DNA of 64,000 nt, from NCBI RefSeq assembly GCF_022201045.2, contig NC_068557.1:13204501-13268500 (forward strand). The letters run 5' to 3'. Numbering within the stretch: position 1 is the stretch's first letter; the number at the start of each line of letters is the position of its first letter. This DNA is from Citrus sinensis. Its lineage: Eukaryota > Streptophyta > Magnoliopsida > Sapindales > Rutaceae. The notes beneath the pieces were generated by a model. The model worked only from the letters and a program-made list of their open reading frames with translations. It was not told the origin of the DNA and did no database searches. A program made the position numbers and the translations under genes. Positions 2,152 through 64,000 of the stretch are shown piece after piece.

Positions 2152-2805
2152 TTACAAACGGAGAGTTAAATCTAATTTACGCTTCTTACTACTGCTATTG
2201 CTACCATCATCAGTTGACCAATCTAGCGCTAAGTCTTGGGATCTGGCTCTGGTGTATAACCTTGTGAAAAATCAAGTAACTCATTAGCAGTAGAAGTACA
2301 AATAAAGAGTTTTTTTACAGTGTGTGAAACAAAATGATTCTTAATTGCATGGTTAATAAAAGTTAGCAAGCCATCATAAAAATTATTAACATTTAACAAA
2401 CCGATGAGTTTTTGATAAATGTCCAAATGAGCTCAAGATGCAAATGTAATTAGTGCCTCAAGAGTTGTAAGATCTCCTGACAAGAAAATAAAAGCATCAA
2501 CATGATTTAACATTTCAGATATTTTCTCTTGCATACTTGATACCACTAATTCTTCTCCAATTGGTAAGCCAGACAGGCATCCTAGAGGTTTAATGGCTTT
2601 TGGGATAATGCCTAATACTTGACTTCTTTTAGTAAAAGCAGCTTCTGAGACAAGTCTTGATAACCCTCGTTCACCTCCTCCATATACAAGGTGTAGTTTC
2701 CTTTCTACTATGATACGACCAAGATCTACAGCTGCCTGAATGAATTCCTTGTACTTCCCATAGTGAAACCTAGAAAGCACACAAATATTTTTGAATTGTC
2801 AAACA
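2152..2805 (-). pseudogene. LOG-like ORF remnant of TE-A
   Basis: Minus-strand remnant of the LOG-like (Rossmann-fold, 'lysine decarboxylase' superfamily) ORF that also occurs in TE-C and TE-E. Visible blocks are LHLVYGGG, QVLGIIPKAIKPLG, SSMQEKISEM, SGDLTTLEAL, KLIGLLNVNNFYDG and a C-terminal KKRKLDLTLRL ending in TAA at 2152-2154. Breaks are a TGG-to-TGA nonsense change between the TLEAL and GLLNVNNFYDG blocks and at least one stop near 2230. The normal N-terminal ATG context is lost, and similarity starts near 2805 at an ICVLS-like block. The canonical motif PGGxGTxxE reads SGDLTTLEA here. This is the most diverged of the three copies, yet its tail is identical to the others in the LDLTLRL heptapeptide. 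Confidence 0.75.
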
Positions 2806-32690: not shown

Positions 32691-33358
32691 TTACAAGCGT
32701 AGAGTTAAATCTAATTTGTACTTTTTACTGCGGCTACTGTTACCGTCATTATTTGGATGCTCCAATATAAAGGTTCAGGGGTCTGGCTCTGGTTTATATG
32801 CTTTTAACAGATCAAGTAGCTCATTAGCAGTGTGAGCACAAATAAAAAGCTTTTTCGCTGTGGAAGGAATGAAATAGTTTTTTATTGCATGGTTAAGAAA
32901 TGCGATAAAGCCATCATAAAAATTATTGACATTTAACAGACCGATGGGTTTCTGGTGAATGTGCAGATGGGTCCAAGATGCTAGTGTGATAAATACCTCT
33001 AGTGTTGCAAGATCTCCTGGAAGGAAATCAAAGCATCAGCATGATTAAGCATTTCTGTTTTTTTTTCTTGCATGCCTGAGACGACTAACTCTTCTTCAAT
33101 TGGTGGGTTAGACAAACTGCCCAAAGGTTTTAGGGCTCTTGGGATGATGCCTAACACTTGGCTTCCTCTGAAAAAAATAGCTTCTGAGACCAATTTTGAT
33201 AACCCTCGGTTGCCTCCTCCATACACCAAGTGTAATTTTCTCTCTGCTTTGCTTCGACCAAGATCTATGGCTGCCTCAACGAACTCTTTATGTTTGCCAT
33301 AGTTAAATCCAGAAAGCACACACATATTCTTGAATTGTCTATTGGGAGTAGCTGCCAT
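32691..33358 (-). pseudogene. LOG-like ORF of TE-C (one-base deletion)
   Basis: Counterpart of the TE-E LOG-like ORF: 668 bp against 669, starting MAATPNRQFKN at 33358. The first two thirds are open (LVYGGGNRGLSK, QVLGIIPRALKPLG, SGMQEKKTEM). A one-base deletion near 33030, just before the PGDLATLE block, shifts the frame. In the restored phase the motif region still reads PGDLATLEV and the C-terminus still ends KKYKLDLTLRL before TAA at 32691-32693. It is no longer translatable in full. Confidence 0.85.
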
Positions 33359-42000: not shown

Positions 42001-45000
42001 CTCCAAAGTAAGATTCCTACAAAAGTGAAGGATCCAGGAAGTTTTACAATGCCCTGCTCTATAGGAACTAAGTACACAGGCAGAGCAGTTTGTGACTTGG
42101 GAGCCAATATGAATCTGATGCCATTGTCTATATTTATGCAATTGGGAGTAGGGGAATGCAGACCAACAACAGTTACTCTGCAATTAGCTGACAGATCTCA
42201 TGCATATCCTGAAGGAAAAATTGATGATGTACTGGTGAAGGTGGACAAATTCATCTTCCCAGTAGACTTCATTGTACTGGACTTTGATGCTGATAAAGAG
42301 GTACCCATAATACTTGGAAATCCTTTCCTAGCAACAGGAAAGACTCTGATAGATGTACAGAACGGAGAGCTCACCGTAAGAGTGAATGATTAGCAAGTCA
42401 TATTTAATGTACTAGAGGCTATGAAGAACCTTGATGAAGTAAAAGATTGCAATTTCCTAAGTGTTGTGGATTTTGTTGTAGTAGACAGAATGGACAGATG
42501 CTGCAGTAATGAGATCAATAGAGTGACCACCTTTGAAGATTTAGAAGAGGAAGAAAAGCATTTTGATAGGCATAATAGGTTTATTGAGCATCTGAATCTT
42601 TCAGACAGGGAAATAAAAACAACTTTACCATCTATTGAATCATATTCTAGTCTTGAATTAAAATTGTTACCTTCACATTTGAAATATGTTTATCTTGGTC
42701 AAAACAACACACTCCCAGTAATCATTTCCTCTACCTTGAATGCAGGTCAAGAACAGAGTCTCGTAGATTTGCTTGGAAGATACAGAAGAGCAATTGGATG
42801 GACCATGGCAAACATCAAGGAGATAAGCCCATCAATATGCATGCATAAAATCCTGTTAGAAGATTGCTTCAGCAATTCGGTGGAGCATCAGAGAAGGTTG
42901 AACCCTATTGTGAAAGCAGTGGTGAAAAAGGAAATCATCAAATGGCTGGATGCTGGAATCATATATCCAATATCAGACAGTTCGTGGGTGAGCCCAATTC
43001 AATGTGTTCCAAAGAAGGGAGGGATAACAATGATAGCTAATGAGAGGGATGAACTTATTCCTACAAGGACAGTGACTGGATAGAGAGTATGTATGGATTA
43101 CAGGAAGCTCAACAAATCCACAAGGAAAGATCACTTCCCACTCCTATTCATAGATCAAATGTTGGACAGACTTGCTGGAAAATAGTACTATTGCTTCCTA
43201 GATGGGTATTCAGGCTACAACCAGATTGTTATAGCTCCAGAAGATTAGGAGAAGACTACATTTACCTGTCCTTATGGAACATTTGCCTTTAGAAGAATGC
43301 CCTTTGGTTTGTGCAATGCTCCAGTAACTTTTTAAAGATGCATGATGTCTATTTTTTCTGATATGGTAAAGCAGACTTTAGAAGTTTACATGGATGACTT
43401 CTTAGTTTTTGGAGAGACATACAATGATTGTTTACATAACTTGGAAGAAGTTCTTAAAAGATGTGAGATGACTAACTTAGTACTCAATTGTGAAAAGTGT
43501 CATTTCATGGTGCAAGAAGGAATAATGTTGGGTCATAAGGTATCCAAGAATTGCATTGAGGTAGACAAAGCCAAGATAGAGGTAATAGATAAACTGCCAC
43601 CTTCCACTTCAATAAAGGGTATTAGGAGTTTTCTTGGTCATGCTGGATTTTACAGAAGATTCATTAAGGATTTTTCCAAGGTAACTAAACCATTATGTTC
43701 ATTGCTAGAATATGACAAGCCTTTTCACTTTGACAAAGATTGTCTCCAAGCATTTGGAGAATTAAAGAAAGCTCCGATCACTGCACCAGTGGTTATATCT
43801 CCAGACTAGACTCTATCATTTGAACTGATCTGTGATGCTAGTGACCATTCTGTGGGAGCAGTATTAGGGCAAAGAAAGGATAAGGTTTTTCACTCCATAT
43901 ACTATGCAAGCAAAACTCTTACTCAAACTCAAATCAATTACACCACTACAGAGATAGAGTTGCTAGCAGTAGTATTTACTTTTGATAAATTCAGAGCTTA
44001 CTTGGTGGGTACTAAAGTAACTGTATACACAGACCATGCAGCCATCAAATACTTAATTTCAAAGAAGGATGCCAAACCAAGATTAATCAGATGGATCTTA
44101 TTGCTTTAAGAATTTAATCTGGAAATTAAAGATAGAAAGGGGACTGAGAATAAAGTAGCAGACCACCTATCACGGCTGGAAGCAGACACAAGTATCTTGA
44201 CAAGGAGTGACATCACTGAAACTTTTCCTGATGAACAACTATTGGTAGTATAGCAAGCACAGATGCTGCAACAGTCAGGATCTCCATGGTATGCAGATTT
44301 GGCTAACTACTTAGTAAGTGGGTTGCTACCACCTGAGCTGAAGTTTCAGGAGAAAAAGAAATTTCTTCATGATGTTAGAAGTTATCAGTGGGATGACCCA
44401 CATTTATATAAGCTATGCTCAGATCAAGTAATTCGAAGATGTGCTTCAGAAGGAGAAATTCCCTACATACTGGAGTCATGCCATGCTGCAGCATATGGAG
44501 GACATTTTGGTAGTCACAGAACAACTGCTAAAGTTCTACAATCAGATTATTACTGGCCTTTTATTTTTAAAGATGCTTATGAATTTGTTAAATGTTGTGA
44601 CAGGTGTCAAAGGACAGGGAACATCACTAAAAGACATGAAATGCCATTGACCAACATTCTGGAAGTGGAAGTTTTTGATGTCTGGGGAATAGATTTCATG
44701 GGACCTTTTCCACCATCCTTTGGGAACTTATATATCATTGTTGCTGTGGATTATGTCTCCAAGTGGGTAGAAGCTGCAGCATTACCTACCAATGATGCTA
44801 AAACAATGGTGGCTTTTCTTCAGAAAAATATTTTTTTCCAGGTTTGGTACTCCTAAAGCAATTATTAGTGATGAGGGTACTCATTTTTGCAATAAAGTCT
44901 TTGCTGCAGCTATGGTAAAATATGGAGTCAGACACAAGGTAGCAACAACATGTCACCCACAATCCAATGGTCAGGCTGAAGTGTCCAACAGAAAAATTAA

Positions 45001-46337: not shown

Positions 46338-47807
46338 ATGCCAAGGTATAAGAAAACAACCAGCCGCCTCAAAGATCCTTTACGCTTTTAGAGTTACCAT
46401 GCTAAAGAAAAATATGAAGAATTCATTGACCTGTGCAAGATTCTGGAAGAAAAAAGGGTTTCAATTTCCAAAACAACTCATCGAAATTGTGCAAACAATA
46501 CACAATGCTGCAGCAAAGCGTGGATGGTTAGAGTTTTGCAACCACCCTCGAGATCCTGTTCTACCAATAGTCAAGGAATTTTACGCCAATTTGGTAAGCT
46601 CTGATCAGCACAACATTTGGGTAAGAAACACACTTGTTCCATTAGACTTCCACGTTGTAAATGCTTTTTATAATTTACCTGCTGAAATTAATTGTGAGTA
46701 TGCCAAGTTGCTTGATAAATTGACCACGAAAAAATGGAACACCATCTTCATAACTTTTACAATAGAAGGGGCATCATGGGCTAATAAGGAAGGGCGTGTA
46801 GTTAATAAGATATATTTGAAACCTATTGCTAAGGTGTGGGTGAAATTTCTGAAATCTAGGCTTATGCCAACCACTCACACTACTACAGTTTCACAAGAAA
46901 GGTTAGTGTTGTTATATGCCATTGTTCGGGGGCTTCCTATAAATGTGGGCAGCATCATCGAAAACGAAATCAGAGATTGTGCAGTAAAGAATCACAAAAC
47001 TACTGCCTTGCTATTTCCTTCACTCATTACCAGCATCTGTGTAGTATCCGGTGTTTGTCTTGATGCGAAAGATGAACATGTCAAGAATGATGGTGCCTTT
47101 ACGACACGTACCATTGAGAGAGTTGCTGGTGAGAGTGCTGGAACAACAATTGAACCAGCTGCTGTAACAGGAGCAATGTGCTGAGGCTCAACAAAGAGAA
47201 AACGATCGGTTTTGGAGCTATCTACAACACCTGGACAACCAACTACACTAATTTCCTCTTTACATGAAACACACTCACCAGAACTTCCCTAATTCATTGT
47301 TCCAGCAGTACAATTTTGACACCAACACCACAAGTGCTCTAGCAGAAGCCAGTGAGGAAGCCACTGCCACAGATGAACCAGAAGCTGAAGCTGCAGCAGA
47401 ACCACAAGCGGAGGTAGAATTAGAAGATGCTGAACCATCTGATCAACCTGAAGAAGAAGGTGACAAGTCTGCGACTGACAACTCACCCACAGAGGCAGAG
47501 GACGACTTTGAGAAAGAGCGTGAGGAACCCTCAATCAATACCCATTCCAAAACTAGGAAAAGGCACATTATACAAGAAAAGGAAGAGAATGACCCTAAAG
47601 AGGAACCCTCCATTCCAGTCCTTTTGGGCAAGGGCAAGGCAAAAATAGCAACACCTCCAGCCTCTGAAGATGAAATGGAGCAAATCGATGCAGAGCTGGC
47701 TGCTGCAGCAACCAGAGTTACACCTACACTTGCAGAAGCCAAGCGGCTGCTTGATATAATTGCCGCCATCACAGCTGAGGGCCAGGTAGTTGATGCATCA
47801 ACCCTAA
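46338..47807 (+). pseudogene. TE-B third ORF (plant 'putative transposon protein' type)
   Basis: Athila-type elements often carry a third ORF of unknown function after pol, and this has the family wording: REFYANLV-type (KEFYANLVSSDQHNIWVRN), NAFYNLPAEI, and RLVLLYAIVRGLPINVGSII. It starts at ATG 46338, has a TAG at about 46389 and a frameshift near 46455, then is open to 47184. After that it is shifted into an acidic, Ala/Glu-rich tail (47264-47807) that ends at the TE-D insertion. No transmembrane segment typical of an envelope protein is visible. Confidence 0.7.
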
Positions 47808-49156: not shown

Positions 49157-49511
49157 AGGTAAGTTATTTTAATTCGTAAAATTAATTTTTGTGAATAATT
49201 TCTTTTATTTTTTTTCTTGTATTTTTTTTATTATTAAAAAAGAAAAAGAAAAAAAAGTGAATCTACATTTAAAGGTTAGTATTTCTTTTCTTTTTCTCTT
49301 CTTTAAAATTCTGTAATATAATTTTCAATTTATTTTTCTTTGTAATTTTTTTGTTTATTTTATTAATTTATTTTTAGTTAATTTATTTCACGTATTTATT
49401 TTTGTGTATTTTTATAGAAAGATTTTAACAGCGTGATAAGGTTAGTAACGTAATTTCTCATTCTTCTTTATTTTTATTTGTTTTGTTCCCATTTATTTTT
49501 GTGTTTCTTGC

Positions 49512-50182
49512 ATGTATGGTCGTAGGTCATTATTACCTAATCTTGAACCTATAGACCTTGAACTAGAAAAATAGTTCGCACACACAAGCACGTTAAAAAT
49601 AAATTTGGAATGGATTTACAAGCACCACAAGAGAGTCCATTTAAGGACTATTTTTGTCCCTTAGGTAATTTGAGCACATCATGTATAAGATACCCAAATG
49701 TAGCTGTTAGGAGCTTTGAACTAAAACCTAGTGTGCTAAATTGTCTCCCCACATTCTATGGCTTAGAAAATGAGGACCCATATAATCATCTGAATGATTT
49801 TCATGCTATTTGTCAAACATTTAAATATGAGATTTTTTCAGACGATGATGTTAAACTCAGATTATTCCCATTTTCTTTAAAGGATAGAGCTCGTTCATGG
49901 TTAAATACTTTGCCTGCTAATAGCATTACATCATGGGAACAAATGGTAACTAAATTTTTGAATAAATTTTTCCCAGTGCATAAAACTAATGCTATTCGCA
50001 GGAAAATTTCAGAGTTTACACAGAGAGAAGACGAGCAGTTTTTCGAAATATGGGAGCGATTGAATGGGCTACTCTTGAAGTGTCCACATCATGGGTACGA
50101 GAAATAGCACCAATGCCAATACTTTTTGGGGGGATTATTGCCGAATATGCAAGAATGGCTAATGGCAACAAGTGGAGGAGAG
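49512..50182 (+). pseudogene. TE-D gag, 5' part (broken)
   Basis: Starts ATG at 49512 with the RRSLLPNLEPIDLELEK block. A one-base deletion near 49571 breaks the frame. Reading resumes from 49610 (MDLQAPQESPFKDYF) through RLFPFSLKDRARSWLNTLP to CPHHGYEK, then a TAG at about 50105 replaces the Trp codon seen in TE-E. The ORF is cut at 50182 by the TE-E insertion and continues at 62652. Confidence 0.88.
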
Positions 50183-50400
50183 TGTTGAGTGTTAGAAAAT
50201 GCATATTTATAAAGGAGAAAACCGTCATTTTACATTTCAAGTCTTACTAACAACCCTTACTTTTATGTATTTAACATTCTTGTGATTTAATTACGTGTGT
50301 TTTATTTTAATTAAGTAATTTATGTATTTTAGGGGCATTATAGTCATTTCACAATAAAGGAGAGATCAGACGGCAAAACGGACATCACTTTTGAACTCAG

Positions 50401-50767
50401 GACGGTCGAAAACCTTAGGAGGAGCATAAAAGGAAAAATGACACTATTCACATGTACGGTACTATTCACGTATACGGGACTGTATACGTTACTGTTCACG
50501 GCACTGTTCACATAGACGGATCGATGACGTGGCATTGACCGATGATGTGGCATTGACTGATGAGGTGTCACGATCCTGTTGGACTAAAATTCTTATGTAC
50601 TGTTGATGGTGACGTGGCAGCATATCAGTGGACGAAAAATCTCGCGTACGGTGCATGCATCACACAGGATTATTTTCAACCAAACCGCGTTACTATTCAA
50701 AGTCGGGTCAAACCGTGTTACTGTTCATCCGCGTGGTCAAACCGTGGACTGTTGACTGATGACGTGG
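50401..50767 (+). promoter_or_regulatory. U3 enhancer-like array: TGACGTGG and TTGAC boxes
   Basis: Three TGACGTGG boxes (50525-50532, 50610-50617, 50760-50767) have the ACGT core bound by plant bZIP factors. Around them are W-box cores: TTGACC and TTGACT on the plus strand (50536, 50553), TTGACT near 50753, and GGTCAA inverted near 50707 and 50736. A run of TGTTCAC / ATTCAC words lies at 50445-50515. Three tandem ~17-bp units, GATGACGTGGCATTGAC-like, cover 50523-50570. Motif identity is seen; activity is inferred. Confidence 0.5.
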
Positions 50768-50826
50768 CGCAATCCTGAGCGTCCAAATTGTTTTTAATCC
50801 GATGGCCATGATTTACTCCATGTATC

Positions 50827-50835
50827 TATAAAAAG
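50827..50835 (+). promoter_or_regulatory. TE-E LTR TATA box
   Basis: TATAAAAAG, followed by GGGGGCCTCTCCCCCC. The same box is at 61934 in the 3' LTR and 48451 in TE-D. It lies just downstream of the ACGT/W-box array, the usual U3 layout, so transcription would start near 50860. Confidence 0.7.
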
Positions 50836-51550
50836 GGGGCCTCTCCCCCCTAATTTGATATCTCTGAATCCATTTTTGGGATCCATTTTCTGTAATTCCT
50901 TCTCCATCTTGTATTTTCTTCGTATTTTAATAAATTCCCATTTTGCCCCTAGTTCAATTATGAGTGGCTAATTTTCTTTCAAGCTTGGGTTGAAGGTGAA
51001 GTCTCAACATGTGTCATGGGCTTAATTTGGTAAATTTACTTTCTCTTCCCCTCTAATTTTTGTGGATGTTTTGACTTCTCGTCGACAAATAATACTAATC
51101 TTGTCTAGATACCGCCTTGGTTACACCGGCTCTCTAGTATAAGGTTATTATTATTTGGCACGATAAGCCCTTAGCACCATATTGATTAGAGCGTGGTTCA
51201 TGAGGTCTGGATTCCCCCCTCATGATTTAATTGGCATTAATACGGATTATTTAGCCCATGATGCATGTTGATACGGATCCAGATACCCAAGTACGTCAAT
51301 TTAATAGATTTTCTCTTCAATTTATTCTCTCCATTGCAATTCCAATTTTAGAATTTATTCTCGCCATTTTAATTTAAGTATTAGCATATTCCAAATCATT
51401 TCCACCATAAATCCAACTACCCATTTACAAAATTAATTCTATATATAATTAAAATCCACCTCCTCGTGGGATCGACACTCGTCACCATTAGTCTATACTA
51501 CAATAGATTCGTGCGCTTGCGAGTACATTAAAATTTGCACAACAAGTTTT

Positions 51551-51567
51551 TGGCGCCGTTGCCGGGG
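51551..51567 (+). other. TE-E primer binding site (tRNA-Asp)
   Basis: TGGCGCCGTTGCCGGGG is fully complementary to the 3' end of plant tRNA-Asp(GTC), six bases after the LTR. The ~390-bp leader from here to gag (51568-51958) is T-rich and holds no ORF of note. Confidence 0.95.
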
Positions 51568-51958
51568 AGGTAAGTAATTTTAATTCATAGAATTAATTTT
51601 TTTGAATAATTTCTTTTATTTGTTTTCTTGTATTTTTTTATTTTATTAAATTAAAAAAAAGAAAAAAAAGTGAATCTACATTTAAAGGTTAGTATTTCTT
51701 TTCTTTTTCTCTTCTTTAAAATTCTGTAATTTAATTTTCCATTTATTTTTCTTTGTAATTTTTTTTTGTTTATCTTATTAATTTAATTTTTAGTTAATTT
51801 CTTTCACGTATTTATTTTTGTGTATTTTTATAGAAAGGTTGTAATAGCGCAATAAGGTTAGTATCGTAATTTCTCCCTCTTCTTTATTTTTATTTGTTTT
51901 GTTCCCATCTTTATTTTTTGTTTTGTTTGCATCTTTATTTTTATTTTATTTATTTTGC

Positions 51959-54900
51959 ATGCATGGTCGTAGGTCATTATTACCTAATCTTGAACCTATA
52001 GACCTTGAATTAGAAAAAACACTTCGCACACACAAACACGTTAAAAATAAAATGGATTTACAAGCACCACAGGAGAGGCCATTTAAGGACTATTTTAGTC
52101 CCTTAAATAATTTGAGCACGTCATGCATAAGATACCCAAATGTAGCTGCTAGGAGTTTTGAATTAAAACCTAGTGTGTTAAATTGTCTCCCTATATTTTA
52201 TGGCCTAGAAAATGAGGATCTATATAATCATTTGAATGATTTTCATGCCATTTGTCAAACATTCAAATATGAGAATTTTTCAGATGATGATGTTAAACTT
52301 AGACTATTCCCATTTTCTTTAAAGGATAGAGCTCGTTCATGGCTTAATATATTGCCTGCTAATAGCATTGTATCATGGGAACAAATGGTTACAAAATTTT
52401 TGAATAAATATTTCCCAGTGCATAAAACCAATGCTATTCGCAGGGAAATCTCGGAGTTTACCCAGAGAGAGGACGAGCAATTTTTCGAAACATGGGAGCG
52501 ATTTAATGGGCTACTCTTGAAGTGTCCACATCATGGGTATGAGAAATGGCACCAATGCCAATACCTTTTGGAGGGATTATTGCCGAATGTGCAAGAATGG
52601 CTAATGGCAACAAGTGGAGGAGAGCTAATGTCAAAAAGTGCATCAGAGATTTGGGAATTCTTCCAGCGACAAGCGGATAATTCCCAACAACGGAGTCGAT
52701 CACTCAGGAATACTAGAAGAATTAAGGGAGTAAATGAGGTTCACATTGGCGAATCAAGTTCAGAAATTAAAGAAGTCAAAGCGATAATTGAAGGTCTCTC
52801 TCGACAAATAGCATCATTATCGACTGCTAAATCAACAGAGCCACATGACCATGACTCATACTCAGATCAAGCCAATGCCATAGGTGTAATGAGAAAACCA
52901 TCGAATTACAACCCATACTCCAACACATATAACCCTGGATGGAGAGACCACCCCAATTTTTCATGGTCTCAAGGATTCCAACAGAATGGACCAACAGCTC
53001 CAGCTCCACCAATTCCACAAAATCCTCAAGCCTCTCAGCCACCATTTAGACCATACAATCAGAACCAGAATTACTCTCAGCCCAGACCATGGGAGGATTC
53101 ATTCCAGAATCTTAAGAATCTTAAGAATCTTACTCACTCCACGATTGAGCAACAGAACCGCACCATTGATGGACTACGAAATGAGTTGAGAGCAGGCTTC
53201 AACTCACAAGCTCAATCAGTTTCAAGCCTCGAGAAGATGGTGGGACAACTCGCTTCTTCAGTTCAGACCTTGGCAATGACCGTTGAGAAAGGTAAGTTTC
53301 CAAGTCAACCAGTGCCTAATCCTAAAGGAGTGCATGAAGCAAGTACCAGTTCACCACAGCAGCATGGAGAAGTCAAAGCAGTAATGACCTTGCGAAAAGG
53401 AAAAGAAGTCGACAACAAAGTGGAGATGCCGGTGACAAAAGAAAATCAAATTGTACCTGTGAATGTTGAGGAATCATCACCGGAGGAGAAAGAAGAAACC
53501 AACCCACGAGAATACATTCCGAAAGCTCCATTTCCTCAGAGGTTAGCGAAAGGCAAGAAGGGAAAATCCACAGGTGAGATTCTTGAAATCTTCAAACAGG
53601 TAAGTGTTAACATCCCTTTGCTTGATGCTATTAAACAAGTTCCATCTTATGCCAAGTTTCTTAAAGACCTTTGTACTAAAAAGAGAAATATGCATGTTTA
53701 AAAGAAGGCATTTTTAACAGAAAACGTTAGTTCTATACTCCAACATAAAATTTCTTTAAAATACAAAGACCCAGGCTCCCCCACTATCTCATGTAGTATA
53801 GGGAACCACACAATTGAGAATGCTTTGCTGGATTTAGGAGCTAGTGTAAATCTGTTGCCTTACTCTGTATTTGTGAAACTTGGACTGGGAGAATTACACC
53901 CAACTCCAGTGGTGTTACAACTTGCAGATCGGTCCACAAAAATACCTCGTGGTATTGTGGAGGACGTGCTTATCCAGGTAGACAAGTTTTATTTTCCTGT
54001 TGATTTCATTGTAATTGACACTCAACCAATACAGGATTCAAGGAAGCACATCCCCATTATTCTAGGCCGACCTTTCTTGGCAACTGCGGATGCTCACATT
54101 CAATGCAGGACTGGAAATATGCAATTGTCTTTCGGCAACATGACTATGGAGCTGAACATCTTCAACATTGCCAAACAACCTCACAGTGCAGATGATGGAA
54201 TTGTTGATGTGGATTTAATTGAAGCATTAGTTGATGACACTTTTCTTTCAAACCTTAGTGATGATCTTTTACAAACATTTTTAACTCACTTTGGTTTGGA
54301 TTTTGATATTGACAGATCGGTCGATGAGGTCAATGCCCTGCTTGACTCAGCACCATCTATGGATACTAATAAATGGAAGTCAAGAGTTGAACAACTAGCA
54401 CCATCAGAGAAGCAACTCATTCCATCATCAGAATCACCACCGAAACTCGAGCTCAAACCATTGCCCAACACTTTGGAATATGCGTTTTTGGGAGAAGAAA
54501 GCACTCTGCCGGTAATCATCTCATCATCCCTCATTGACGAACAAAAAAGTAAGTTGTTAGATGTTTTGAAAGAGCACAAAGGGGCATTAGGATGGACCAT
54601 AGCAGACATAAAAGGTATAAATCCAGTAGACTGCATGCATTACATTCACCTTGATGAAAATGCTAAAACTACTAGGGAGATGCAACGTCGGTTAAATCCT
54701 AACATGAAAGAAGTTGTTAGAACAGAAGTCCTTAAGCTATTAGACGCAGGTATCATTTACCCCATTTCTGATAGTTCATGGGTCAGTCCTGTACAAGTTG
54801 TCCCCAAAAAGTCAGGAGTCACAGTAGTTACGAATGCTGATAATGAATTGATACCCACTAGAGTAACTACAGGATGGCGTGTATGCATTGATTATAGAAA

Positions 54901-57348
54901 GTTGAATTCTGTCACACGTAAAGACCATTTTCCTTTACCATTTATCGATCAAATGCTTGATAGATTAGCAGGCCATGAATTTTATTGCTTTCTAGATGGC
55001 TACTCAGGATATAATCAGATTCCCATAGCACCAAAAGATCAAGAGAAAACTACTTTCACTTGCCCTTTTGGCACATTTGCATATAGGAGAATGCCATTTG
55101 GATTATGTAATGCACCTGCTACATTTCAACGATGCATGTTAAGCATTTTTTCTGATATGGTTGAACGATTCCTTGAAGTCTTTATGGATGACTTTTCTGT
55201 CTTTGGTGATTCGTTTGATCAATGTTTACATCATCTAACACTAGTTCTGCAGAGATGTATCGAGAAGAACTTGGTCTTAAATTGGGAGAAATGTCATTTT
55301 ATGGTAAAACAAGGTATTGTTCTCGGTCACATCATTTCGAGCAAAGGTATTGAGGTTGACAAAGCCAAGGTGGATCTCATTTCTAATCTTCCTCCACCCA
55401 AAACAGTCAGAGAAGTAAGATCTTTCCTTGGGCATGCTGGTTTCTATAGACGTTTCATTAAAGATTTTAGCAAAGCTTCTAGACCCTTATGCAATTTACT
55501 TGCTAAGGATGTACCTTTTGTCTTTGATGATTCATGTCTTGTTGCGTTTGAAAAATTAAAGCATTTGTTGACATCATCACCCATCATTCAGCCCCCAAAC
55601 TGGAACTTACCATTTGAGCTCATGTGTGATGCATCTGATTATGCAGTAGGAGCAGTATTAGGACAAAGAGTTGATCGAATTCCCCACGTTATTTACTATG
55701 CTAGTAGGACATTGAATGATGCACAGTTGAACTATTCAACTACTGAAAAAGAAATGCTAGCAGTAGTGTTTGCATTAGAAAAATTTCGATCGTATCTCAT
55801 TGGTTGTAAAATAATTATATTCACGGATCATGCTGCTCTTAAATATCTTCTCACAAAGAAAGATGCAAAAGCCAGACTAATTCGTTGGGTGTTACTTTTA
55901 CAGGAGTTCGACTTGGAATTCAAAGATAAGAAAGGCACAGAGAATGTTGTGGCGGACCACCTCTCTCGTCTCCATTTTGACACAATTACAGAATCATTAC
56001 CATTGAATGAGTCATTTCCAGATGAACAATTAATGAATGTGGAAGTATTACCTTGGTACGCTGATATAGTTAATTATCTTGTTACAGGTAAACTTCCAGA
56101 GCATTGGACCAAGCAAGACAAGGCTAAATTCTTTGCAGAAATAAAGAATTTCTTTTGGGATGACCCGTATTTGTTCAAGTATTGTGTGGATCAAATTGTT
56201 AGATGATGTGTCCCAGAAAGTGAAATTCAGAATATCCTTTCATTCTGCCATGAACAAGCTTGTGGAGGCCATTTCAGCGCTAAGAAAACAGCGACTAAAG
56301 TTTTACAATGTGGTTTCTATTGGCCATCTATATTTCGAGACGCTTACACTTTCTGTTCTTCATGTGATAGGTGTCAACGAATGGGGAGCATTACACGAAG
56401 GAACATGATGCCACTAAATCCAATTTTAGTGGTTGAGATTTTTGACGTATGGGGTATCGACTTCATGGGACCCTTTCCCCCGTCTTTTGGCCATCAATAC
56501 ATATTGGTTGCTGTTGACTACGTATCGAAATGGGTAGAAGCAATTCCATGTAGGACCAATGATCACAAGGTGGTGATAGCATTTTTGAAAAGCAACATTG
56601 TTTCACGGTTTGGATTCCCACGAGCGATAATCAGTGATGGTGGTGCCCACTTTTGTAACAAAGCATTCAAAGCTCTTTTGACAAAGTATTCAATCACACA
56701 CAAAGTGGCAACTCCGTATCATCCGCAAACCAGTGGCCAAGTTGAGATATCCAATCGAGAAATAAAGCACATATTAGAAAAAAGGTGAGGCCAGACAGGA
56801 AAGATTGGTCATTAAGACTTGATGATGCATTATGGGCATATAGAACGGCTTTCAAGACCCCAATTGGGATGTCACCCTACAGGCTAGTATATGGAAAAGC
56901 TTGCCACCTACCTGTGGAACTCGAGCATCGTGCGTATTGGGCCATCAAGAAATTCAATTTTGACATGCAGCAAGCCAGCTCAGAAAGAAGATTACATCTG
57001 GCAGAACTTGAAGAAATTCGCAATGACGCGTACGAAAACGCCAAGATTTACAAGCAACGAATGAAAGTCTCCCATGACAAGCAAATTATGAGAAAATCTT
57101 TCACTCCAGGTCAGAAAGTGCTTTTATTCAATTCTCGCTTGCACCTATTCCCAGGTAAGTTACGCTCTCGTTGGTCTGACCCATTTATTGTTCATACTGT
57201 TTTTCCACATGGGGCAATTGAAATTAAGGACCCAAAGAACTGTGTCACGTTTAAAGTTAATGGTCAAAGATTAAAGCCATATCTAGAATACCAATCACAT
57301 GGAGAAGACATCGAAATAAATTTGAGTGACCCACCATATTTGAATTGA
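51959..57348 (+). pseudogene. TE-E gag-pol polyprotein with three lesions
   Basis: One reading frame encodes gag (from MHGRRSLLPNLEP at 51959; gag domain with KLRLFPFSLKDRARSW; YNPGWRDHPNFSW; no CCHC knuckle), then protease ([11 protein letters not shown] near 53830). RT follows ([13 protein letters not shown]; catalytic FMDD near 55182-55193), then RNase H ([10 protein letters not shown] near 55820), the integrase HHCC region ([12 protein letters not shown]...CDRCQ) and the DDE core ([29 protein letters not shown]). Lesions: TAA at 53699-53701 (CAA in TE-C and TE-D), TGA at 56204-56206 (Gln in TE-C, Arg in TE-B), and a one-base deletion near 56782 that moves the integrase end to another frame (56785-57348). 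All domains are otherwise complete. It is probably inactive by itself. Confidence 0.95.
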
Positions 57349-57471
57349 ATTTTTTTTCTTTTCGTTGATTTAATTTTTTTTCTTTCTTTATATTATTCTT
57401 TTGCTAATTGAAATTATTTTTGCATAAGTGTGTTTGTTTAACTATTAAGTTTTCTTTTATCGTTTTTAATC

Positions 57472-57825
57472 ATGAGTACCTTACTTAGACCGTTCCTCCT
57501 GAACATTCTTAAACCACTTCAACGTGTCAAAACTCATCTCAAAAGACAGATTCAATTTTGTAAAACACAACGCATTTGGGCTCAACAACCACCAGAGTTA
57601 GTAGCCTATGTTGAGGGTTTAGAATGCCAACTCCGAGACATTGAGAGAAGTATTTACGACATCCAGTTGGAGCTTGAGGTAAATTCAATAAGAGGACGAT
57701 TTTAATTTTCTTTGTGTGTTTTAATTTGTTTTTCTGTTTGTGTGCTTTAGTTTGTTACCCCGGTGAAATAGCGGATAACGGTACTCCGTGACAATCAAGT
57801 CGGTTACTTCAGTTTCCCATATTAA
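57472..57825 (+). CDS. TE-E ORF2: small coiled-coil protein, probably spliced
   Basis: Unspliced, the ORF from ATG 57472 gives 77 residues to 57705. Seen: an N-terminal Leu/Pro-rich stretch, a basic middle (KTHLKRQ), then a heptad-like VEGLECQLRDIERSIYD block at about 46-62. A donor-like GAG|GTAAAT at 57679 and a strong pyrimidine-rich acceptor ending GTGCTTTAG at 57750 would remove a 72-nt intron in phase 0. The reading beyond is FVTPVK then TAG. In TE-C the same reading stays open for about 18 more codons, so TE-E carries a Trp-to-TAG change. No known domain is recognised. ORF or intron could be incidental, but the signals are present in both copies. Confidence 0.4.
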
Positions 57826-57846
57826 CTGATATTTTGAGGCGAAAGT

Positions 57847-58404
57847 ATGGACAGAAATGAGATTCTAGCGAAGTTTCACAAGCGATTCCCTTCACTTCCT
57901 CAGAATGCCCTCCTTACGATCTATAAAGCTCGGTCCGAACGCATGCGATTACTCATGAGGAATAACATACCTGCTGACATCCGTTGGTTAATCGAGGCTA
58001 AAGTACGGTCGGCAGGTGAGTTACCTCCAAAATTTATTGCATACATGCCTGGTTGTGGTAAAGGAAATTATGCAAGAAAACGACGAGCTTGAAGAATTTC
58101 TGTTGCTTGTCATAAGTGTGCCAGAATGAGTTGCAATAAAAACCCATGTTCTTTAGGAATGGTGTCTGATAACAGGGAAGATAAGATTCAATTCATTAGG
58201 GATGGCTTGAATAAGGAGTCATTGGATGATATCCTTTTGTCTCTTGAAACGCATCCCAGTGGATATGTGCAAGGAGCGATTCTCCAGTTATGGCCATTAT
58301 TCCAGAAAGAGTATGCACGATATAGTCTCAGGAATCTGACTATAAACGACCCTGTTTGCCAGTTCATAAGAAAACTGGATAGGAAGCCTATCCTCGACCC
58401 ATAG
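57847..58404 (+). pseudogene. TE-E ORF3: basic, cysteine-rich, carlavirus NABP-like protein (one nonsense codon)
   Basis: A 185-codon frame from ATG 57847 to TAG at 58402-58404, interrupted only by TGA at codon 82 (58090-58092), which is CGA in TE-C. Seen in order: an Arg/Lys-rich helical N-terminal half with ARSERMRLLMRNN (28-40); GCGKGNYARKRRA (69-81); the cysteine cluster C88-x2-C91-x4-C96-x4-C101; then a less basic tail with THPSGYVQGAILQLWPLF. The YARKRRA plus C-x2-C layout resembles the cysteine-rich nucleic-acid-binding proteins of carlaviruses, which bind nucleic acid and in some cases suppress silencing or act in the nucleus. That is a by-eye resemblance, not a database result. It lies between pol and the LOG-like ORF in both family members. 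Confidence 0.5.
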
Positions 58405-58716
58405 AGGGCGTTCAAGCCGTTTCTGGACGTAAAACCAGAGGAAGATGTGAGCCACAGTCGCAACTACCTGTAAATATCCTTTTACTTTATTATTTCACTA
58501 TTGTCTTATTGTTTGCATTATTGTCTTTAATAATTTTATTACTGTTTGCTTTTTTCTTTTTACTATTTTCTTTTTGACTTGCGAGCCACGTGCTTTACGC
58601 GTTATTTGACACTGACATATTACCTCATACACAACCATGACCCACTATCACCGAGATTCTTAAATGTGATTTTCTTTTTGTCAAGCACTCACAAATTGTT
58701 TTCGAGAAGTATCACA

Positions 58717-59385
58717 ATGGCAGCTACTCCCAATAGACAATTCAAGAACATTTGTGTGCTTTCTGGATTTACCTATGGCAAACATAAAGAGTTCGTTGAG
58801 GCAGCTATAGATCTTGGTCGAAGCATAGCAGCGAGAAAATTACACTTGGTGTATGGAGGAGGTAACCGAGGGTTATCAAAAATGGTCTCAGAAGCAGCTT
58901 TTATCAGAGGAAGTCAAGTGTTAGGCATCATCCCAAGAGCCCTAAAACCTTTGGGCAGTTCGTCTGACTCATCAACTGGAGAAGAGTTAGTCGTCTCAGG
59001 TATGCAAGAAAGAATAACTGAAATACTTAATCATGCTGATGCTTTTATTTTCCTTCCAGGAGATCTTGCAACACTAGAGGCACTTATCACACTAGCATCT
59101 TGGGCCCATCTGCACATCCACCAAAAACCCATCGGTTTGTTAAATGTCAATAACTTTTATGATGGCTTTATCGCATTTCTTAACCATGCAATAAAAAACT
59201 ATTTCATTCCTTCTAATGTAAAAAAACTTTTTATTTGTGCTCACACTGCTAATGAGCTACTTGATATGTTACAAGCTTATCGACCGAAGCCAGACCCCTG
59301 GACCTTTGTGTTGGAGCGTCCAAATAATGATGGTAACAGTAGCCGCAGTAAGAAGTACAAATTAGATTTAACTCTCCGCCTATAA
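58717..59385 (+). CDS. TE-E LOG-like ORF with altered active site and EAR-type tail
   Basis: 222 residues, open from MAATPNRQFKN; the in-frame ATG at 58546 adds a hydrophobic leader absent from TE-C, so I prefer 58717. LOG enzymes release active cytokinin bases from their nucleotides. Family blocks are in order: ICVLSGF (12-18), LVYGGGNRGL (44-53), VLGIIPRALKP (68-78), MQER (96-99, keeping the conserved Arg), FLPGDLATLEA (112-122), KPIGLLNVNNFYDG (137-150) and a C-terminal helix to about 190. The signature PGGxGTxxE reads PGDLATLEA: two glycines and the catalytic Glu (here Ala122) are gone. Residues 191-222 are extra: a linker, basic SKKYK (211-215), and LDLTLRL (216-222), an EAR motif of the LxLxL type. 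Inference: a captured, probably non-enzymatic LOG fold that may enter the nucleus and bind TOPLESS-type corepressors. It is the only undamaged long ORF of the element. Confidence 0.85.
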   Translation: MAATPNRQFKNICVLSGFTYGKHKEFVEAAIDLGRSIAARKLHLVYGGGNRGLSKMVSEAAFIRGSQVLGIIPRALKPLGSSSDSSTGEELVVSGMQERITEILNHADAFIFLPGDLATLEALITLASWAHLHIHQKPIGLLNVNNFYDGFIAFLNHAIKNYFIPSNVKKLFICAHTANELLDMLQAYRPKPDPWTFVLERPNNDGNSSRSKKYKLDLTLRL

Positions 59386-61277
59386 ATATTTTCTTCTGTG
59401 TTGCACCACCCAGGTGATGTCTTTTAAACTCTACTTCTTTCATTTCAAACATTGAGGACAATGTTTCGTTCTGGTTGGGGGGAGGGAATAGTCGACAATT
59501 GTGGAATTTTGGTTAAGTTTTTACTATTTTTTTGTTGTAGAAACTAACTGTTGCTAACTTTTTGTGTTAAAGATGGCTGAATATGGAGTGTAGTTACTCT
59601 AGAAACGCATCTTCATTGTTTAAAAAAAAATTCAAAAAAAAAATTAGACATTTTCTTTTTCTTTATTAAGTTTTGATGTTTATTTTTCTTCTTTTTAATT
59701 TCTCCTCTATGAATATACATTTTCCAACTTTTGAGTCGAAGATGGCTGAATATGGAGTGTAGTGCCTCTAGAAACGCATCTTCTTAGTAAAAAAAAAAAA
59801 ACCATTTTCTTTTTCTATCATTTTAAGTGTAGTTTTTCTAATTTATTTTTTGCATCATTTTCACATTTCTGCATGCATATTTTCCTTTCATGTTTAGAAT
59901 AGGTTGGGGGGTAGAATGTTGTTTAAAAAAAAAATTGTGTGATTTGTTTTAACATTGGATGACATGATTAATTTCAAATTTTAGTATTTGTATTATCTTT
60001 GGTCTTAAGTGATGTTACATTATGTTTGCTACTCTACATGTTGATGTCGGAGACAAATATGCGTTGCTTGAAGGAATGAACATGTCATAATAAGTACCAA
60101 GTGAGTTTTTGAGCCTATCATTTTTCTTGGAGAGTAACCCTTTTGCCCATTCTTTATACAGCTTAACAGTTTATTATTGTATACACGATCTCTAGATTTC
60201 TTTTGAGTTAACCCTTAATAAAAAAAAAAAAGAAGAAAAAGAGAAAAAAAAAGAAAAAAAAAGTGTGTTGCTACATTTGGAGGCCCATTTAACTAGTAGA
60301 TATGGAAGGTTATTTAGAGCCCTAAAAGATGATGGAAAGGCCATCTTTGATCCGTTTGAGCCTTTCTAGCCATCCCTTTTATTAAATATCCATAGTTAAC
60401 CCTTTTGAGCCTTTAAAAAAAAAAACATTTTCTTTGTCAACTTATCATCTTGACCCACTCCGATTTGGAGTATTATCCGATATCTTATAAGTTCCATCAC
60501 CTATTTATGTTTGAGAAAATGTAAATAATTATGTTGTTCAGTGAAGTTATACCAAAAAAAAAAAAAAAACAACAACAACAAAACAAAAGTTGTTGTTTCA
60601 AAAGAATAAAAATAACAATAATAGGTGAAATCCACCTTGCAACTTCCAAAAAATAAAAAAATAAAAAAATTCTTTGCATTTTTCTCAAACATACACTTTG
60701 TTTTCCTTATTTCCTTTATTTATTAACCATATCCCTAGCCTGCGTTACATCCTAATAAAAGTCCTTCCTGATTTTAGGGAACTATAATCTGAAGTAGAAG
60801 CTAGTTATATGGGCTAAAAAGATGTAGTGGTGCATATAAAAAAATAAATAAATAAATTGGGTTGACTAACAATTTTTATTTGACTTGAGATCGTATTATT
60901 TTTAAGCTGAGGGCATATTTATTTCATCTTGGTGAGAGCATGTGATATCACTTCTTCATTATTTTCTCTCAATTACCATTCATTGGAGTGACTATTTTTA
61001 TTGGGTTTAATTTATTTGTAAGAGTGTCACTACTTCCAGTGAGATTTTGGGGTTTGACATGTCATTCTTGAAAGTAGCTATAACAAAGTCTACTGGGCTG
61101 ATTCATGTGGATGGTTGATGTGGGTGTGATGTTGCTTTAGACTGGAGATAATGCTTATACTTTTATTTGATTGCTATCATTAATCTGATTGAATAAACAC
61201 AAGTGTTTCTAAAAAAAAAAATCATTTTGAATTTGAATTTTGTTTTCGCTTTATTTGCTAGGGACTAGCAATAAGCT
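59386..61277 (+). repeat. TE-E 3' noncoding region
   Basis: 1.9 kb without a gene. Landmarks: ATTGAGGACAATGTTTCGTT followed by a purine tract at 59473-59486 (GGTTGGGGGGAGGG); two ~45-bp copies (59570-59614 and 59739-59783) of AAGATGGCTGAATATGGAG...CTCTAGAAACGCATCTTC; a second purine tract at 59902-59912; and A-rich tracts near 60220-60260 and 60550. Between the two 45-bp copies lies TCTATGAATATACATTTTCC, an inverted copy of the LTR's own first bases. Small ORFs here are runs of Phe/Lys codons and not genes. Confidence 0.8.
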
Positions 61278-61289
61278 GGTTGGGGGGTG
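61278..61289 (+). other. TE-E polypurine tract
   Basis: GGTTGGGGGGTG immediately precedes the 3' LTR; it is the primer for plus-strand DNA synthesis. Identical to the tract of TE-C. Confidence 0.92.
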
Positions 61290-62651
61290 TGTTGAGTGTT
61301 AGAAAATGCATATTTATAAAGGAGAAAACCGTCATTTTACATTTCAAGTCTTACTAACAACCCTTACTTTTATGTATTTAACATTCTTGTGATTTAATTA
61401 CGTGTGTTTTATTTTAATTAAGTAATTTATGTATTTTAGGGGCATTATAGTCATTTCACAATAAAGGAGAGATCAGACGGCAAAACGGACATCACTTTTG
61501 AACTCAGGACGGTCGAAAACCTTAGGAAGAGCATAAAAGGAAAAATGACACTATTCACATGTACGATACTATTCACGTATACGGGACTGTATACGTTACT
61601 GTTCACGGCACTGTTCACATAGACGGATCGATGACGTGGCATTGACCGATGATGTGGCATTGACTGATGAGGTGTCACGATCCTGTTGGACTAAAATTCT
61701 TATGTACTGTTGATGGTGACGTGGCAGCATATCAGTGGACGAAAAATCTCGCGTACGGTGCATGCATCACACAGGATTATTTTCAACCAAACCGCGTTAC
61801 TATTCAAAGTCGGGTCAAACCGTGTTACTGTTCATCCGCGTGGTCAAACCGTGGACTGTTGACTGATGACGTGGCGCAATCCTGAGCGTCCAAATTGTTT
61901 TTAATCCGATGGCCATGATTTACTCCATGTATCTATAAAAAGGGGGCCTCTCCCCCCTAATTTGATATCTCTGAATCCATTTTTGGGATCCATTTTCTGT
62001 AATTCCTTCTCCATCTTGTATTTTCTTCGTATTTTAATAAATTCCCATTTTGCCCCTAGTTCAATTATGAGTGGCTAATTTTCTTTCAAGCTTGGGTTGA
62101 AGGTGAAGTCTCAACATGTGTCATGGGCTTAATTTGGTAAATTTACTTTCTCTTCCCCTCTAATTTTTGTGGATGTTTTGACTTCTCGTCGACAAATAAT
62201 ACTAATCTTGTCTAGATACCGCCTTGGTTACACCGGCTCTCTAGTATAAGGTTATTATTATTTGGCACGATAAGCCCTTAGCACCATATTGATTAGAGCG
62301 TGGTTCATGAGGTCTGGATTCCCCCCTCATGATTTAATTGGCATTAATACGGATTATTTAGCCCATGATGCATGTTGATACGGATCCAGATACCCAAGTA
62401 CGTCAATTTAATAGATTTTCTCTTCAATTTATTCTCTCCATTGCAATTCCAATTTTAGAATTTATTCTCGCCATTTTAATTTAAGTATTAGCATATTCCA
62501 AATCATTTCCACCATAAATCCAACTACCCATTTACAAAATTAATTCTATATATAATTAAAATCCACCTCCTCGTGGGATCGACACTCGTCACCATTAGTC
62601 TATACTACAATAGATTCGTGCGCTTGCGAGTACATTAAAATTTGCACAACA
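61290..62651 (+). repeat. TE-E 3' LTR
   Basis: 1,362 bp, identical by eye to the 5' LTR except at 61528 and 61566. It is followed by target duplication GAGAG at 62652-62656. Confidence 0.97.
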
Positions 62652-64000
62652 GAGAGCTAATGTCAGAAAGTGCATCAGAGATTTGGGAATTCTTCCAGCG
62701 ACAAGCGGATAATTCCCAACAACAGAGTCGATCACTGAGGAATACTAGAAAAATTAAGGGAGTGAATGAGGTTTACATTGGCGAGTCAACTTTGGGAATC
62801 AAAGAAGTTAAGGAGATGGTTGAAAGTTTTGCTCGACAAATAGCATCGTTGTCGACTGCTAAATCAACAGAGCCACATGACCATGACTCATACTCAGATC
62901 AAGCTAATACCATAGGTGTAATGAGAAAACCATCAAATTACAACCCATACTCCAACACATATAACCCTGGATGGAGAGACCACCCCAATTTTTCATGGTC
63001 TCAAGGATTCCAATAGAATGGACCAGCAGCTCCAACTCCACCAATGCAACAAACTCCTCAAGTTCCTCAACCCTCTCAGCGACCATTTAGACCATACAAT
63101 CAAAACCAAAACTACTTTCAACCCAGCCCATGGGAGGATTCATTTCAGAATCTCAAGAATCTTACTCACTCCACGATTGAGCAACAGAACCATACCATTG
63201 ATGGACTACGAAATGAGTTGAGAGCAGGTTTCAACTCACAAGCCCAATCAGTTTCAAGCCTCGAGAAGATGGTGGGACAACTAGCTTCTTCAGTTAAGAC
63301 CTTGGCAATGACTATTGAGAAAGGCAAATTTCTAAGTCAACCAGTGCTTAATCCTAAAGGAGTACATGAAGCAAGTACCAGTTCACCACAGCAGCATGGA
63401 GAGGTCAAAGCAGTCATGACCTTACAAAAAAGAAAAGAAGTCGACAACAAAGTGGAGATGCCGGTGACAAAAGAAAATCAAATTGTACCTGTAAATGCTG
63501 AGGACTCATCACCGGAGGAGAAATAAGAAACCAACCCACGCGAATATATTCCCAAAGCTCCATTTCCTCAGAGGTTAGCGAAAGGAAAGAAGGGAAAATC
63601 CACAGGTGAGATTCTCGAAATCTTCAAACAGGTAAGTGTTAACATCCCTTTACTTGATGCTATAAAGCAAGTTCCATCTTATGCCAAGTTTCTTAAAGAC
63701 CTTTGTACTAAAAAGAGAAACATTCATGTTCAAAAGAAGGCATTTTTAACATAAAACGTTAGTTTTATCCTCCAACATAAAATTCCTCTGAAATGTAAAA
63801 ACTCAGGCTCCCCCACTATCTCATGTAGTATAGGGAACCACACAATTGAGAATGCTTTGTTGGATTTAGAAGCTAGTGTAAATTTGTTGCCTTACTCTGT
63901 ATTCGTGAAATTTGGACTGGGAGAATTACACCCAACTCCAGTGGTGTTGCAGCTTGCAGATCGGTCCACAAAGATACCTCGTGGTATTGTGGAGGACGTG
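62652..64000 (+). pseudogene. TE-D gag 3' part and start of protease (broken)
   Basis: Resumes the TE-D gag exactly where it was cut at 50182 (ELMSESASEIWEFFQRQADN). It continues through YNPGWRDHPNFSW and the Gln/Pro-rich region to KAPFPQRLAKGKKGK. Stops: TAG near 63015 (CAG in TE-E), TAA near 63525 (GAA in TE-E), and TAA at about 63752 (GAA in TE-E). The protease start ([16 protein letters not shown]) appears from 63820. At the motif Gly the sequence reads DLEASVNLLP, so the DLGA core is mutated. It runs off the window. Confidence 0.88.

What the first reader, a model, noticed from the sequence alone, without database searches (positions are those of the whole stretch)
57472..59385. Ty3/gypsy family with a three-gene 3' cassette that includes a captured LOG-like gene
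Seen: three diverged elements (TE-A 2152-2805, TE-C 32691-33358, TE-E 58717-59385) carry a LOG-like ORF at the same place, on the sense strand between pol and the 3' LTR. TE-C and TE-E also share ORF2 and ORF3 upstream of it. Known: Athila-type elements often carry an extra ORF after pol, but I know of no description of a LOG-fold protein there. Inference: capture happened once in an ancestor and the gene has been kept through several rounds of transposition, so it probably helps the element or its spread. This is my best candidate for a previously undescribed system.
Basis: partly seen in the sequence, partly recalled or inferred. Interest (0 to 1): 0.9.

Follow-up and report, generated by a model that had tools for sequence, protein, structure and literature searches.

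The report
Citrus jumping gene with borrowed genes
A very abundant citrus retrotransposon carries, behind its replication genes, a zinc-finger gene resembling one from plant RNA viruses and a plant hormone-enzyme gene whose active site has decayed, and natural selection appears to have kept both.

Summary
The LOG-like ORF (58717-59385) is real and homologous to plant LONELY GUY proteins. It lies in a young Ty3/gypsy element, very probably of sweet orange (LTRs 50183-51544 and 61290-62651, 2 mismatches). In every sampled copy pol is followed by ORFs of 77, 185 and 222 aa (LOG). LOG capture was single: 20 TE proteins form one clade (100/100), without introns. Between-family dN/dS is 0.21 (LOG), 0.25 (185 aa), 0.32 (77 aa); 14 of 14 integrase-picked copies carry both larger genes. 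The LOG signature PGGxGTxxE is lost: 833 genomic sites have the altered motif; the only uninterrupted intact one is a host gene. So this is a LOG-derived pseudoenzyme by sequence. A LOG-family domain in Citrus LTR elements was already in print. The newer part is the 185-aa protein: its basic, zinc-knuckle core matches nucleic-acid-binding CRPs of plant flexiviruses (33 of 39 relatives hit Viral_NABP, best E 1.2e-8), and relatives occur in Xanthoceras, Acer and Populus; a control shows that the match rests mostly on a 37-residue core. Best reading: a virus-like nucleic-acid-binding, perhaps silencing-suppressing protein plus a non-catalytic LOG serve the element. Function is untested.

The parts
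50183..51544 (+). 5' LTR of TE-E
   Evidence: the BLAST piece (50182-51544, 1363 columns, 2 mismatches) includes one chance base; the printed LTR starts TGTTGAG and ends CACAACA
61290..62651 (+). 3' LTR of TE-E; target duplication GAGAG at 50178-50182 and 62652-62656
51551..51568 (+). primer-binding-site-like stretch
   Evidence: sequence; pairs with the acceptor end seen at 15 genomic sites; the name tRNA-Asp is recalled and ARAGORN found no tRNA at the one fetched
51899..53701 (+). gag ORF
   Evidence: Pfam PF03732, E 1.3e-18
53825..57348 (+). protease, RT, RNase H and integrase part of pol, split into several frames in this copy
57472..57705 (+). ORF A, 77 aa, no known domain
   Evidence: full length in 28 of 30 family-1 and 26 of 30 family-2 loci; between-family dN/dS 0.32; no Pfam family under E 0.01
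57847..58092 (+). ORF B (CRP-like, 185 aa in other copies), first part
58093..58404 (+). ORF B, second part, same frame, after an in-frame stop; uninterrupted copies exist
   Evidence: dN/dS 0.25
58352..58490 (+). block around the ORF B stop that is unusually conserved at DNA level between the two families
   Evidence: 60-column windows of 54/60 and 57/60 identity against 57-68% at third codon positions of the three ORFs; seen in 76 of 76 loci
58717..59385 (+). ORF C, LOG-derived protein of 222 aa with the signature motif lost
   Evidence: dN/dS 0.21
61282..61289 (+). G-rich stretch before the 3' LTR, polypurine-tract-like
   Evidence: sequence; by eye
32694..33358 (-). TE-C LOG relict (frameshift and stop); its ORF B relict lies at 33681-34235 and its ORF A relict at 34378-34584
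2232..2798 (-). TE-A LOG relict (stop), 72% identical

Best explanation
This is the 3' accessory module of a highly successful, recently active Ty3/gypsy (Athila-like) lineage of Citrus. SHOWN by sequence: three sense ORFs (77, 185 and 222 aa) follow pol in the sampled copies and are under purifying selection; the LOG gene entered once, has no introns and has lost the signature active-site motif; the 185-aa protein shares the basic plus zinc-knuckle core of the nucleic-acid-binding cysteine-rich proteins (CRPs) of plant flexiviruses. INFERRED: the 185-aa protein binds nucleic acid and shields the element's RNA or DNA from host silencing, as some viral CRPs do. INFERRED, weaker: the LOG-derived protein is a non-catalytic nucleotide-binding or dimerising partner (interfering with host LOG or sensing a nucleotide), not a cytokinin-making enzyme. 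The last two ORFs are probably made from spliced or subgenomic RNA, because they lie far behind the gag-pol start.
For: All 60 loci from two protein searches carry the three ORFs in this order; 14 of 14 integrase-picked copies carry both larger genes, LOG uninterrupted in 12 and the 185-aa gene in 11. dN/dS between families 0.32, 0.25, 0.21; pN/pS among 12 integrase-picked copies 0.168 (bootstrap 0.09-0.28) for LOG and 0.348 (0.18-0.61) for the 185-aa gene. One TE clade 100/100; two host genes examined have introns and the intact motif. Motif counts: 1 intact uninterrupted (host), 833 altered. CRP: 33 of 39 members hit Viral_NABP and 32 hit Carla_C4 at E up to 0.01; several pass Pfam's gathering score. 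Mandarivirus CRPs of citrus are pathogenicity determinants and one suppresses silencing (PMC12172455, abstract and section 5).
Against: No functional data. The Pfam match rests mostly on a 37-residue core: six of six shuffles that kept only that core still hit Carla_C4 (23-29 bits) and Viral_NABP (20-23 bits), while none of four full shuffles did. Family-1 Citrus copies score below the gathering scores. Structure models were too poor to use (pLDDT 56 and 38). A scan of viral contigs found no relative. The spliced-RNA step rests on position alone.
Confidence: 0.5

Rival explanations
1. The likeness of the 185-aa protein to viral CRPs is convergence of a short basic and zinc-knuckle motif; it is an element-born nucleic-acid-binding (nucleocapsid-like) protein with no viral ancestry and no suppressor role.
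For: The 37-residue core alone gives most of the score; the Citrus copies are sub-threshold; no viral relative was found in viral contigs.
Against: The real flanks add about 10-14 bits in Viral_NABP (34.1 and 32.5 bits against 20-23), and among Pfam families only these two viral ones match most members (33 and 32 of 39; the next ones match 1).
Confidence: 0.25
2. The module is an env-like or cell-to-cell movement function, as proposed for other sense ORFs behind pol in plant elements.
For: Same place and orientation as the sense ORFs reviewed in PMC7264820 (part 1 of 3 read); another gypsy element in the window has a Transposase_32 ORF in its 3' part instead.
Against: The zinc-knuckle core and the LOG fold point to nucleic-acid and nucleotide binding; membrane-spanning segments were not tested.
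Confidence: 0.15
3. The LOG-derived protein is an active cytokinin-releasing enzyme that changes host growth in favour of the element.
For: Clear LOG homology, the GGG phosphate loop and the Arg of the M-x-x-R stretch are kept, strong constraint.
Against: None of 20 aligned TE proteins keeps PGGxGTxxE; 833 sites carry the altered motif and the only uninterrupted intact one is a host gene.
Confidence: 0.07
4. The ORFs are passive passengers that ride with the element and decay neutrally.
For: Many copies are broken, including TE-A, TE-C and the 185-aa gene of TE-E.
Against: dN/dS of 0.21-0.32 between families and pN/pS of 0.17-0.35 among copies not picked by these genes.
Confidence: 0.03

Closest known systems
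LOG-family (YgdH) domain in Citrus and Populus LTR retrotransposons (PMC9289625, section 12; Steinbauerova et al. 2011 as cited there, not read)
   Same: LOG-family domain in Citrus Ty3/gypsy elements; very probably the same families
   Different: The passage read does not mention the lost motif, selection, the single origin or the CRP-like neighbour
Plant LONELY GUY cytokinin riboside 5'-monophosphate phosphoribohydrolases (Arabidopsis At2g37210, PDB 2a33)
   Same: About 42-45% identity over the domain; TE clade groups with plant host LOGs
   Different: Signature motif lost, no introns, multicopy and mobile
CRP / nucleic-acid-binding proteins of carla-, allexi- and mandariviruses (Pfam PF01623, PF05515; PMC12172455)
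   Same: Basic NLS-like stretch followed by a zinc-knuckle-like Cys pattern; Pfam matches
   Different: Carried by an LTR retrotransposon; extra conserved N- and C-terminal parts; likeness strongest in a 37-residue core
Orchid Ty3/gypsy elements with an m6A RNA demethylase ORF (PMC9289625)
   Same: A captured extra gene kept by a plant gypsy lineage
   Different: Tat/Ogre elements and a different gene with demonstrated enzyme activity; here the captured enzyme looks dead
Athila-type elements with extra or env-like ORFs behind pol (PMC7264820, PMC6317226)
   Same: Extra sense ORFs between pol and 3' LTR
   Different: PMC6317226 scored only ORFs of at least 250 codons, above the 185 and 222 found here

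Membership tests
Ty3/gypsy LTR retrotransposon | LTR pair, target duplication, gag, RT and RNase H | tested here: met
Athila clade (within OTA) | Placement in an RT/RH/INT tree | not tested
   no tree was built; the label rests on likeness and recall
Athila clade (within OTA) | No second RNase H (as in Tat) and no chromodomain | tested here: inconclusive
   Pfam found one RNase H region in the RT ORF (two overlapping models) and no chromodomain in the six ORFs scanned, but pol is split and not every piece was scanned
LOG phosphoribohydrolase | PF03641 / TIGR00730 family match | tested here: met
   E 1.2e-26 and 5.3e-35
LOG phosphoribohydrolase | NCBIfam equivalog cut-off for CtkRMPhLog | tested here: not met
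   87.9 bits against a cut-off of 300
LOG phosphoribohydrolase | PGGxGTxxE motif (name recalled; seen in the Arabidopsis alignments) | tested here: not met
   0 of 20 aligned TE proteins; 833 altered sites
LOG phosphoribohydrolase | Enzyme activity | not testable with these tools
   needs an assay
Flexivirus CRP / nucleic-acid-binding protein | Pfam PF01623 or PF05515 at gathering score | tested here: inconclusive
   met by several members (P0048, P0087, P0143, P0165, P0180, P0206 and others) but not by the three family-1 loci and the one family-2 locus scanned
Flexivirus CRP / nucleic-acid-binding protein | Basic stretch followed by a Cys-x2-Cys pattern | tested here: met
   a C-x2-C-x4-C-x(1-4)-C pattern in 33 of 39 members; basic stretch in 38 of 39
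Flexivirus CRP / nucleic-acid-binding protein | Silencing suppression or nucleic-acid binding | not testable with these tools
   needs an assay

The most novel reading that the evidence does not exclude
An RNA-virus-type silencing-suppressor gene was exchanged between flexiviruses and a plant LTR-retrotransposon lineage, and together with a dead LOG enzyme it forms a selected counter-defence module that helped the lineage reach more than 800 copies in Citrus; relatives of the virus-like gene persist in other Sapindales and in Populus.
Probability: 0.3. Interest if true: 0.85.

Novelty: new variant of a known kind. Interest (0 to 1): 0.6.

Why it matters
Extra ORFs in plant gypsy elements are common, but their origins and functions are mostly unknown; the review read in part (PMC7264820) states, for antisense extra ORFs, that they lack similarity to viruses. 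Here is a family with a traceable origin for one extra gene and a likely viral link for another, with purifying selection and many uninterrupted copies, so the function of such ORFs becomes testable. There is also a practical side: Citrus proteins named cytokinin riboside 5'-monophosphate phosphoribohydrolase include many copies of this transposon pseudoenzyme (cluster P0002 alone stands for 705 member sequences), which can mislead LOG gene-family surveys in citrus.

Tried and rejected
Separate genes ORF2 and ORF3: rejected, they are one frame. Active LOG: disfavoured by the motif. Copies lacking LOG: of 28 CRP motifs on contig C1 without a LOG motif downstream, 2 were fetched and both still carry a decayed LOG; the other 26 were not looked at. 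Structure route: models too poor (mean pLDDT 55.6 and 38.4), so no fold search was run. Viral contigs: 23 stretches matched a pattern, none a relative. LOG outside Citrus: both LOG searches listed 120 of 748 and 120 of 677 hits, all of them Citrus or unnamed, so only the paper's Populus remark bears on it. Rfam: no hit. RNA structure of the conserved block: z -2.21, 7 of 200 shuffles as good, weak. Integrase dN/dS as a yardstick: dS 2.99, saturated. tRNA primer: two wrongly spaced patterns gave 0, a third gave 15, ARAGORN found no tRNA at the one fetched. Papers: nothing on a flexivirus-type CRP in an LTR retrotransposon in the listings (20 of 339 shown; 20 of 24 shown); on LOG in retrotransposons searches showed PMC9289625 alone as bearing on it. 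These cover open-licence PMC texts only; supplements could not be read.

Full report
Setting. 

The element. TE-E has LTRs at 50183-51544 and 61290-62651. BLAST gives 2 mismatches in 1363 aligned columns, one of them a chance base before the LTR. Both sides bear GAGAG. It sits inside the gag of another copy of its family, which breaks off at about 50182 and resumes at 62654. At a recalled rate of 1.3e-8 per site and year this is about 56 thousand years. Pfam recognises gag, RT and RNase H. In TE-E pol is split, while many other copies show open frames of about 1820-1840 aa over the integrase end. The Athila label is by likeness; no RT tree was made.

The cassette. Behind pol come a 77-aa ORF (57472-57705), a 185-aa ORF (57847-58404, interrupted here) and the 222-aa LOG-like ORF (58717-59385). 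All 60 loci (30 found with the LOG, 30 with a Populus CRP) have the three in this order. They form two families; family 2 is mostly about 74% (LOG), 67% (185 aa) and 55% (77 aa) identical to family-1 proteins. Full-length frames in families 1 and 2: LOG 30 of 30 and 21 of 30; 185 aa 29 of 30 and 26 of 30; 77 aa 28 of 30 and 26 of 30. These sets were picked by protein likeness and lean to intact copies. A check not picked by these genes: 14 of the 150 integrase hits, all plus-strand and chosen by me down the list, were fetched. 14 of 14 carry both genes, LOG uninterrupted in 12 and the 185-aa gene in 11. Exact motif counts in the genome: 833 for the TE-type LOG motif and 880 for a motif of the 185-aa protein, 0 for both reversed controls. 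On contig C1, 51 of 79 CRP motifs have a LOG motif 0.7-1.4 kb downstream and 51 of 83 LOG motifs have a CRP motif upstream. Two of the 28 unpaired CRP copies were fetched, and both carry a decayed LOG.

Selection. Nei-Gojobori dN/dS between families, broken copies left out: 0.331/1.036 for 77 aa (28 x 26 copies), 0.233/0.936 for 185 aa (29 x 26), 0.157/0.740 for LOG (30 x 21). Among 12 of the 14 integrase-picked copies (two with frameshifts dropped), pN/pS is 0.168 for LOG (bootstrap 0.09-0.28) and 0.348 for the 185-aa gene (0.18-0.61). Integrase dS between families is saturated, so no yardstick from pol is available.

The LOG-derived protein. Best solved relatives are Arabidopsis 2a33 and 1ydh, then bacterial LOGs. 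A tree of 20 TE proteins (rows picked by me), 2 Arabidopsis, 2 Citrus host and 2 bacterial LOGs gives one TE clade (100/100) on a stem of 0.92; plants plus TE split from bacteria (99/97). The plant parent is unresolved, and only four host proteins were at hand. Three host loci were examined by exon matches: two genes and a decayed copy. They have introns and a GG-Y/F-GTLE stretch. The TE gene has no introns, which fits capture of a spliced mRNA. Where Arabidopsis reads PGGYGT-L/M-EE, the TE proteins of both families read mostly PGDLAT-L/F-EA, and none of 20 aligned rows has PGGxGTxxE. One uninterrupted intact motif exists in the genome, in a host gene; host genes that split the motif by an intron escape that count. 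By sequence it is a pseudoenzyme. That the altered motif is repeated at 833 sites and the protein evolves slowly argues for a kept, non-catalytic role.

The 185-aa protein. The search listed 120 of 268 hits (E up to 10); named ones are from Citrus x changshan-huyou, Xanthoceras sorbifolium, Acer yangbiense, Populus x canadensis and P. alba; the rest have no name. Whether these sit in retrotransposons outside Citrus was not seen. Of 39 members that I picked, 33 hit Viral_NABP (best 1.2e-8) and 32 hit Carla_C4 (best 3.7e-8) at E up to 0.01. Citrus copies are weaker: L003 13.3 bits and L005 16.3 bits for Carla_C4, though the Citrus gene models P0048 and P0087 reach 21.9 bits against a cut-off of 20.9. 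Control: of four fully shuffled sequences none hits these families (one hits NEMO at E 0.012). Six with only residues 64-100 kept all hit Carla_C4 (23-29 bits) and Viral_NABP (20-23 bits). So the likeness is carried by the basic and zinc-knuckle core; the real flanks add about 10-14 bits in Viral_NABP (34.1 and 32.5 bits) and little in Carla_C4. Shared ancestry is likely, not proved, and its direction is open. In citrus-infecting mandariviruses such CRPs carry NLS and zinc-finger motifs, cluster nearest to allexi- and carlavirus CRPs, are pathogenicity determinants, and one suppresses silencing (PMC12172455, abstract and section 5).

A cis element. Around the stop codon of the 185-aa ORF two 60-column windows are 54/60 and 57/60 identical between one copy of each family, and the spacer to LOG is 249/316 identical (shuffled mean 45%), while third codon positions are 57% (77 aa), 61% (185 aa) and 68% (LOG) identical. 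The block was found in 76 of 76 loci searched. A splicing or translation signal is a guess; a later sequence exchange between families would also explain it.

What is known. PMC9289625 (section 12 read; passages) reports the LOG-family YgdH domain in LTR-retrotransposon consensuses of Citrus sinensis and C. clementina, and of Populus trichocarpa when a filter is lifted, 'in line with' Steinbauerova et al. 2011, which is not held. PMC6317226 (passages) scored extra ORFs of at least 250 codons, above both genes here. PMC7264820 (passages and part 1 of 3) reviews extra ORFs and, for the antisense ones, states that they lack similarity to viruses. PMC7145672 (passages) lists Athila among the abundant gypsy lineages of Citrus. 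No paper on the CRP-like gene turned up in the searches named under Tried and rejected.

Noticed in passing
window 58352-58490 and equivalents in 76 loci: DNA around the ORF B stop codon is far more conserved between families than third codon positions, and the T-rich spacer before the LOG is 79% identical; function unexplained.
   Followed up: partly
L085 (G000:C1:5060901-5062601): The 185-aa gene is 98% like family 1, but the LOG is only 82-85% like it and frameshifted: a possible mosaic of subfamilies.
   Followed up: no
window 56785-57348 against L031-L060: Integrase synonymous sites are saturated between the families (dS 2.99), while LOG (0.74) and CRP (0.94) are not: the 3' module may have been exchanged between families after pol diverged.
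   Followed up: no
window 46399-47184: Another gypsy element (pol at 42088-44436 about 54% identical to that of TE-E) has a Transposase_32 ORF (PF20167, E 1e-39) in its 3' part.
   Followed up: partly
window 14521-16782 (-): Open 753-aa frame of a hAT transposase with BED finger, RNase H-like and dimerisation domains.
   Followed up: partly
window 49454-63730: TE-E is nested in the gag of another copy of its own family.
   Followed up: partly
Citrus protein records: Many Citrus proteins named cytokinin riboside 5'-monophosphate phosphoribohydrolase are copies of this transposon gene; LOG counts in Citrus may be inflated.
   Followed up: no
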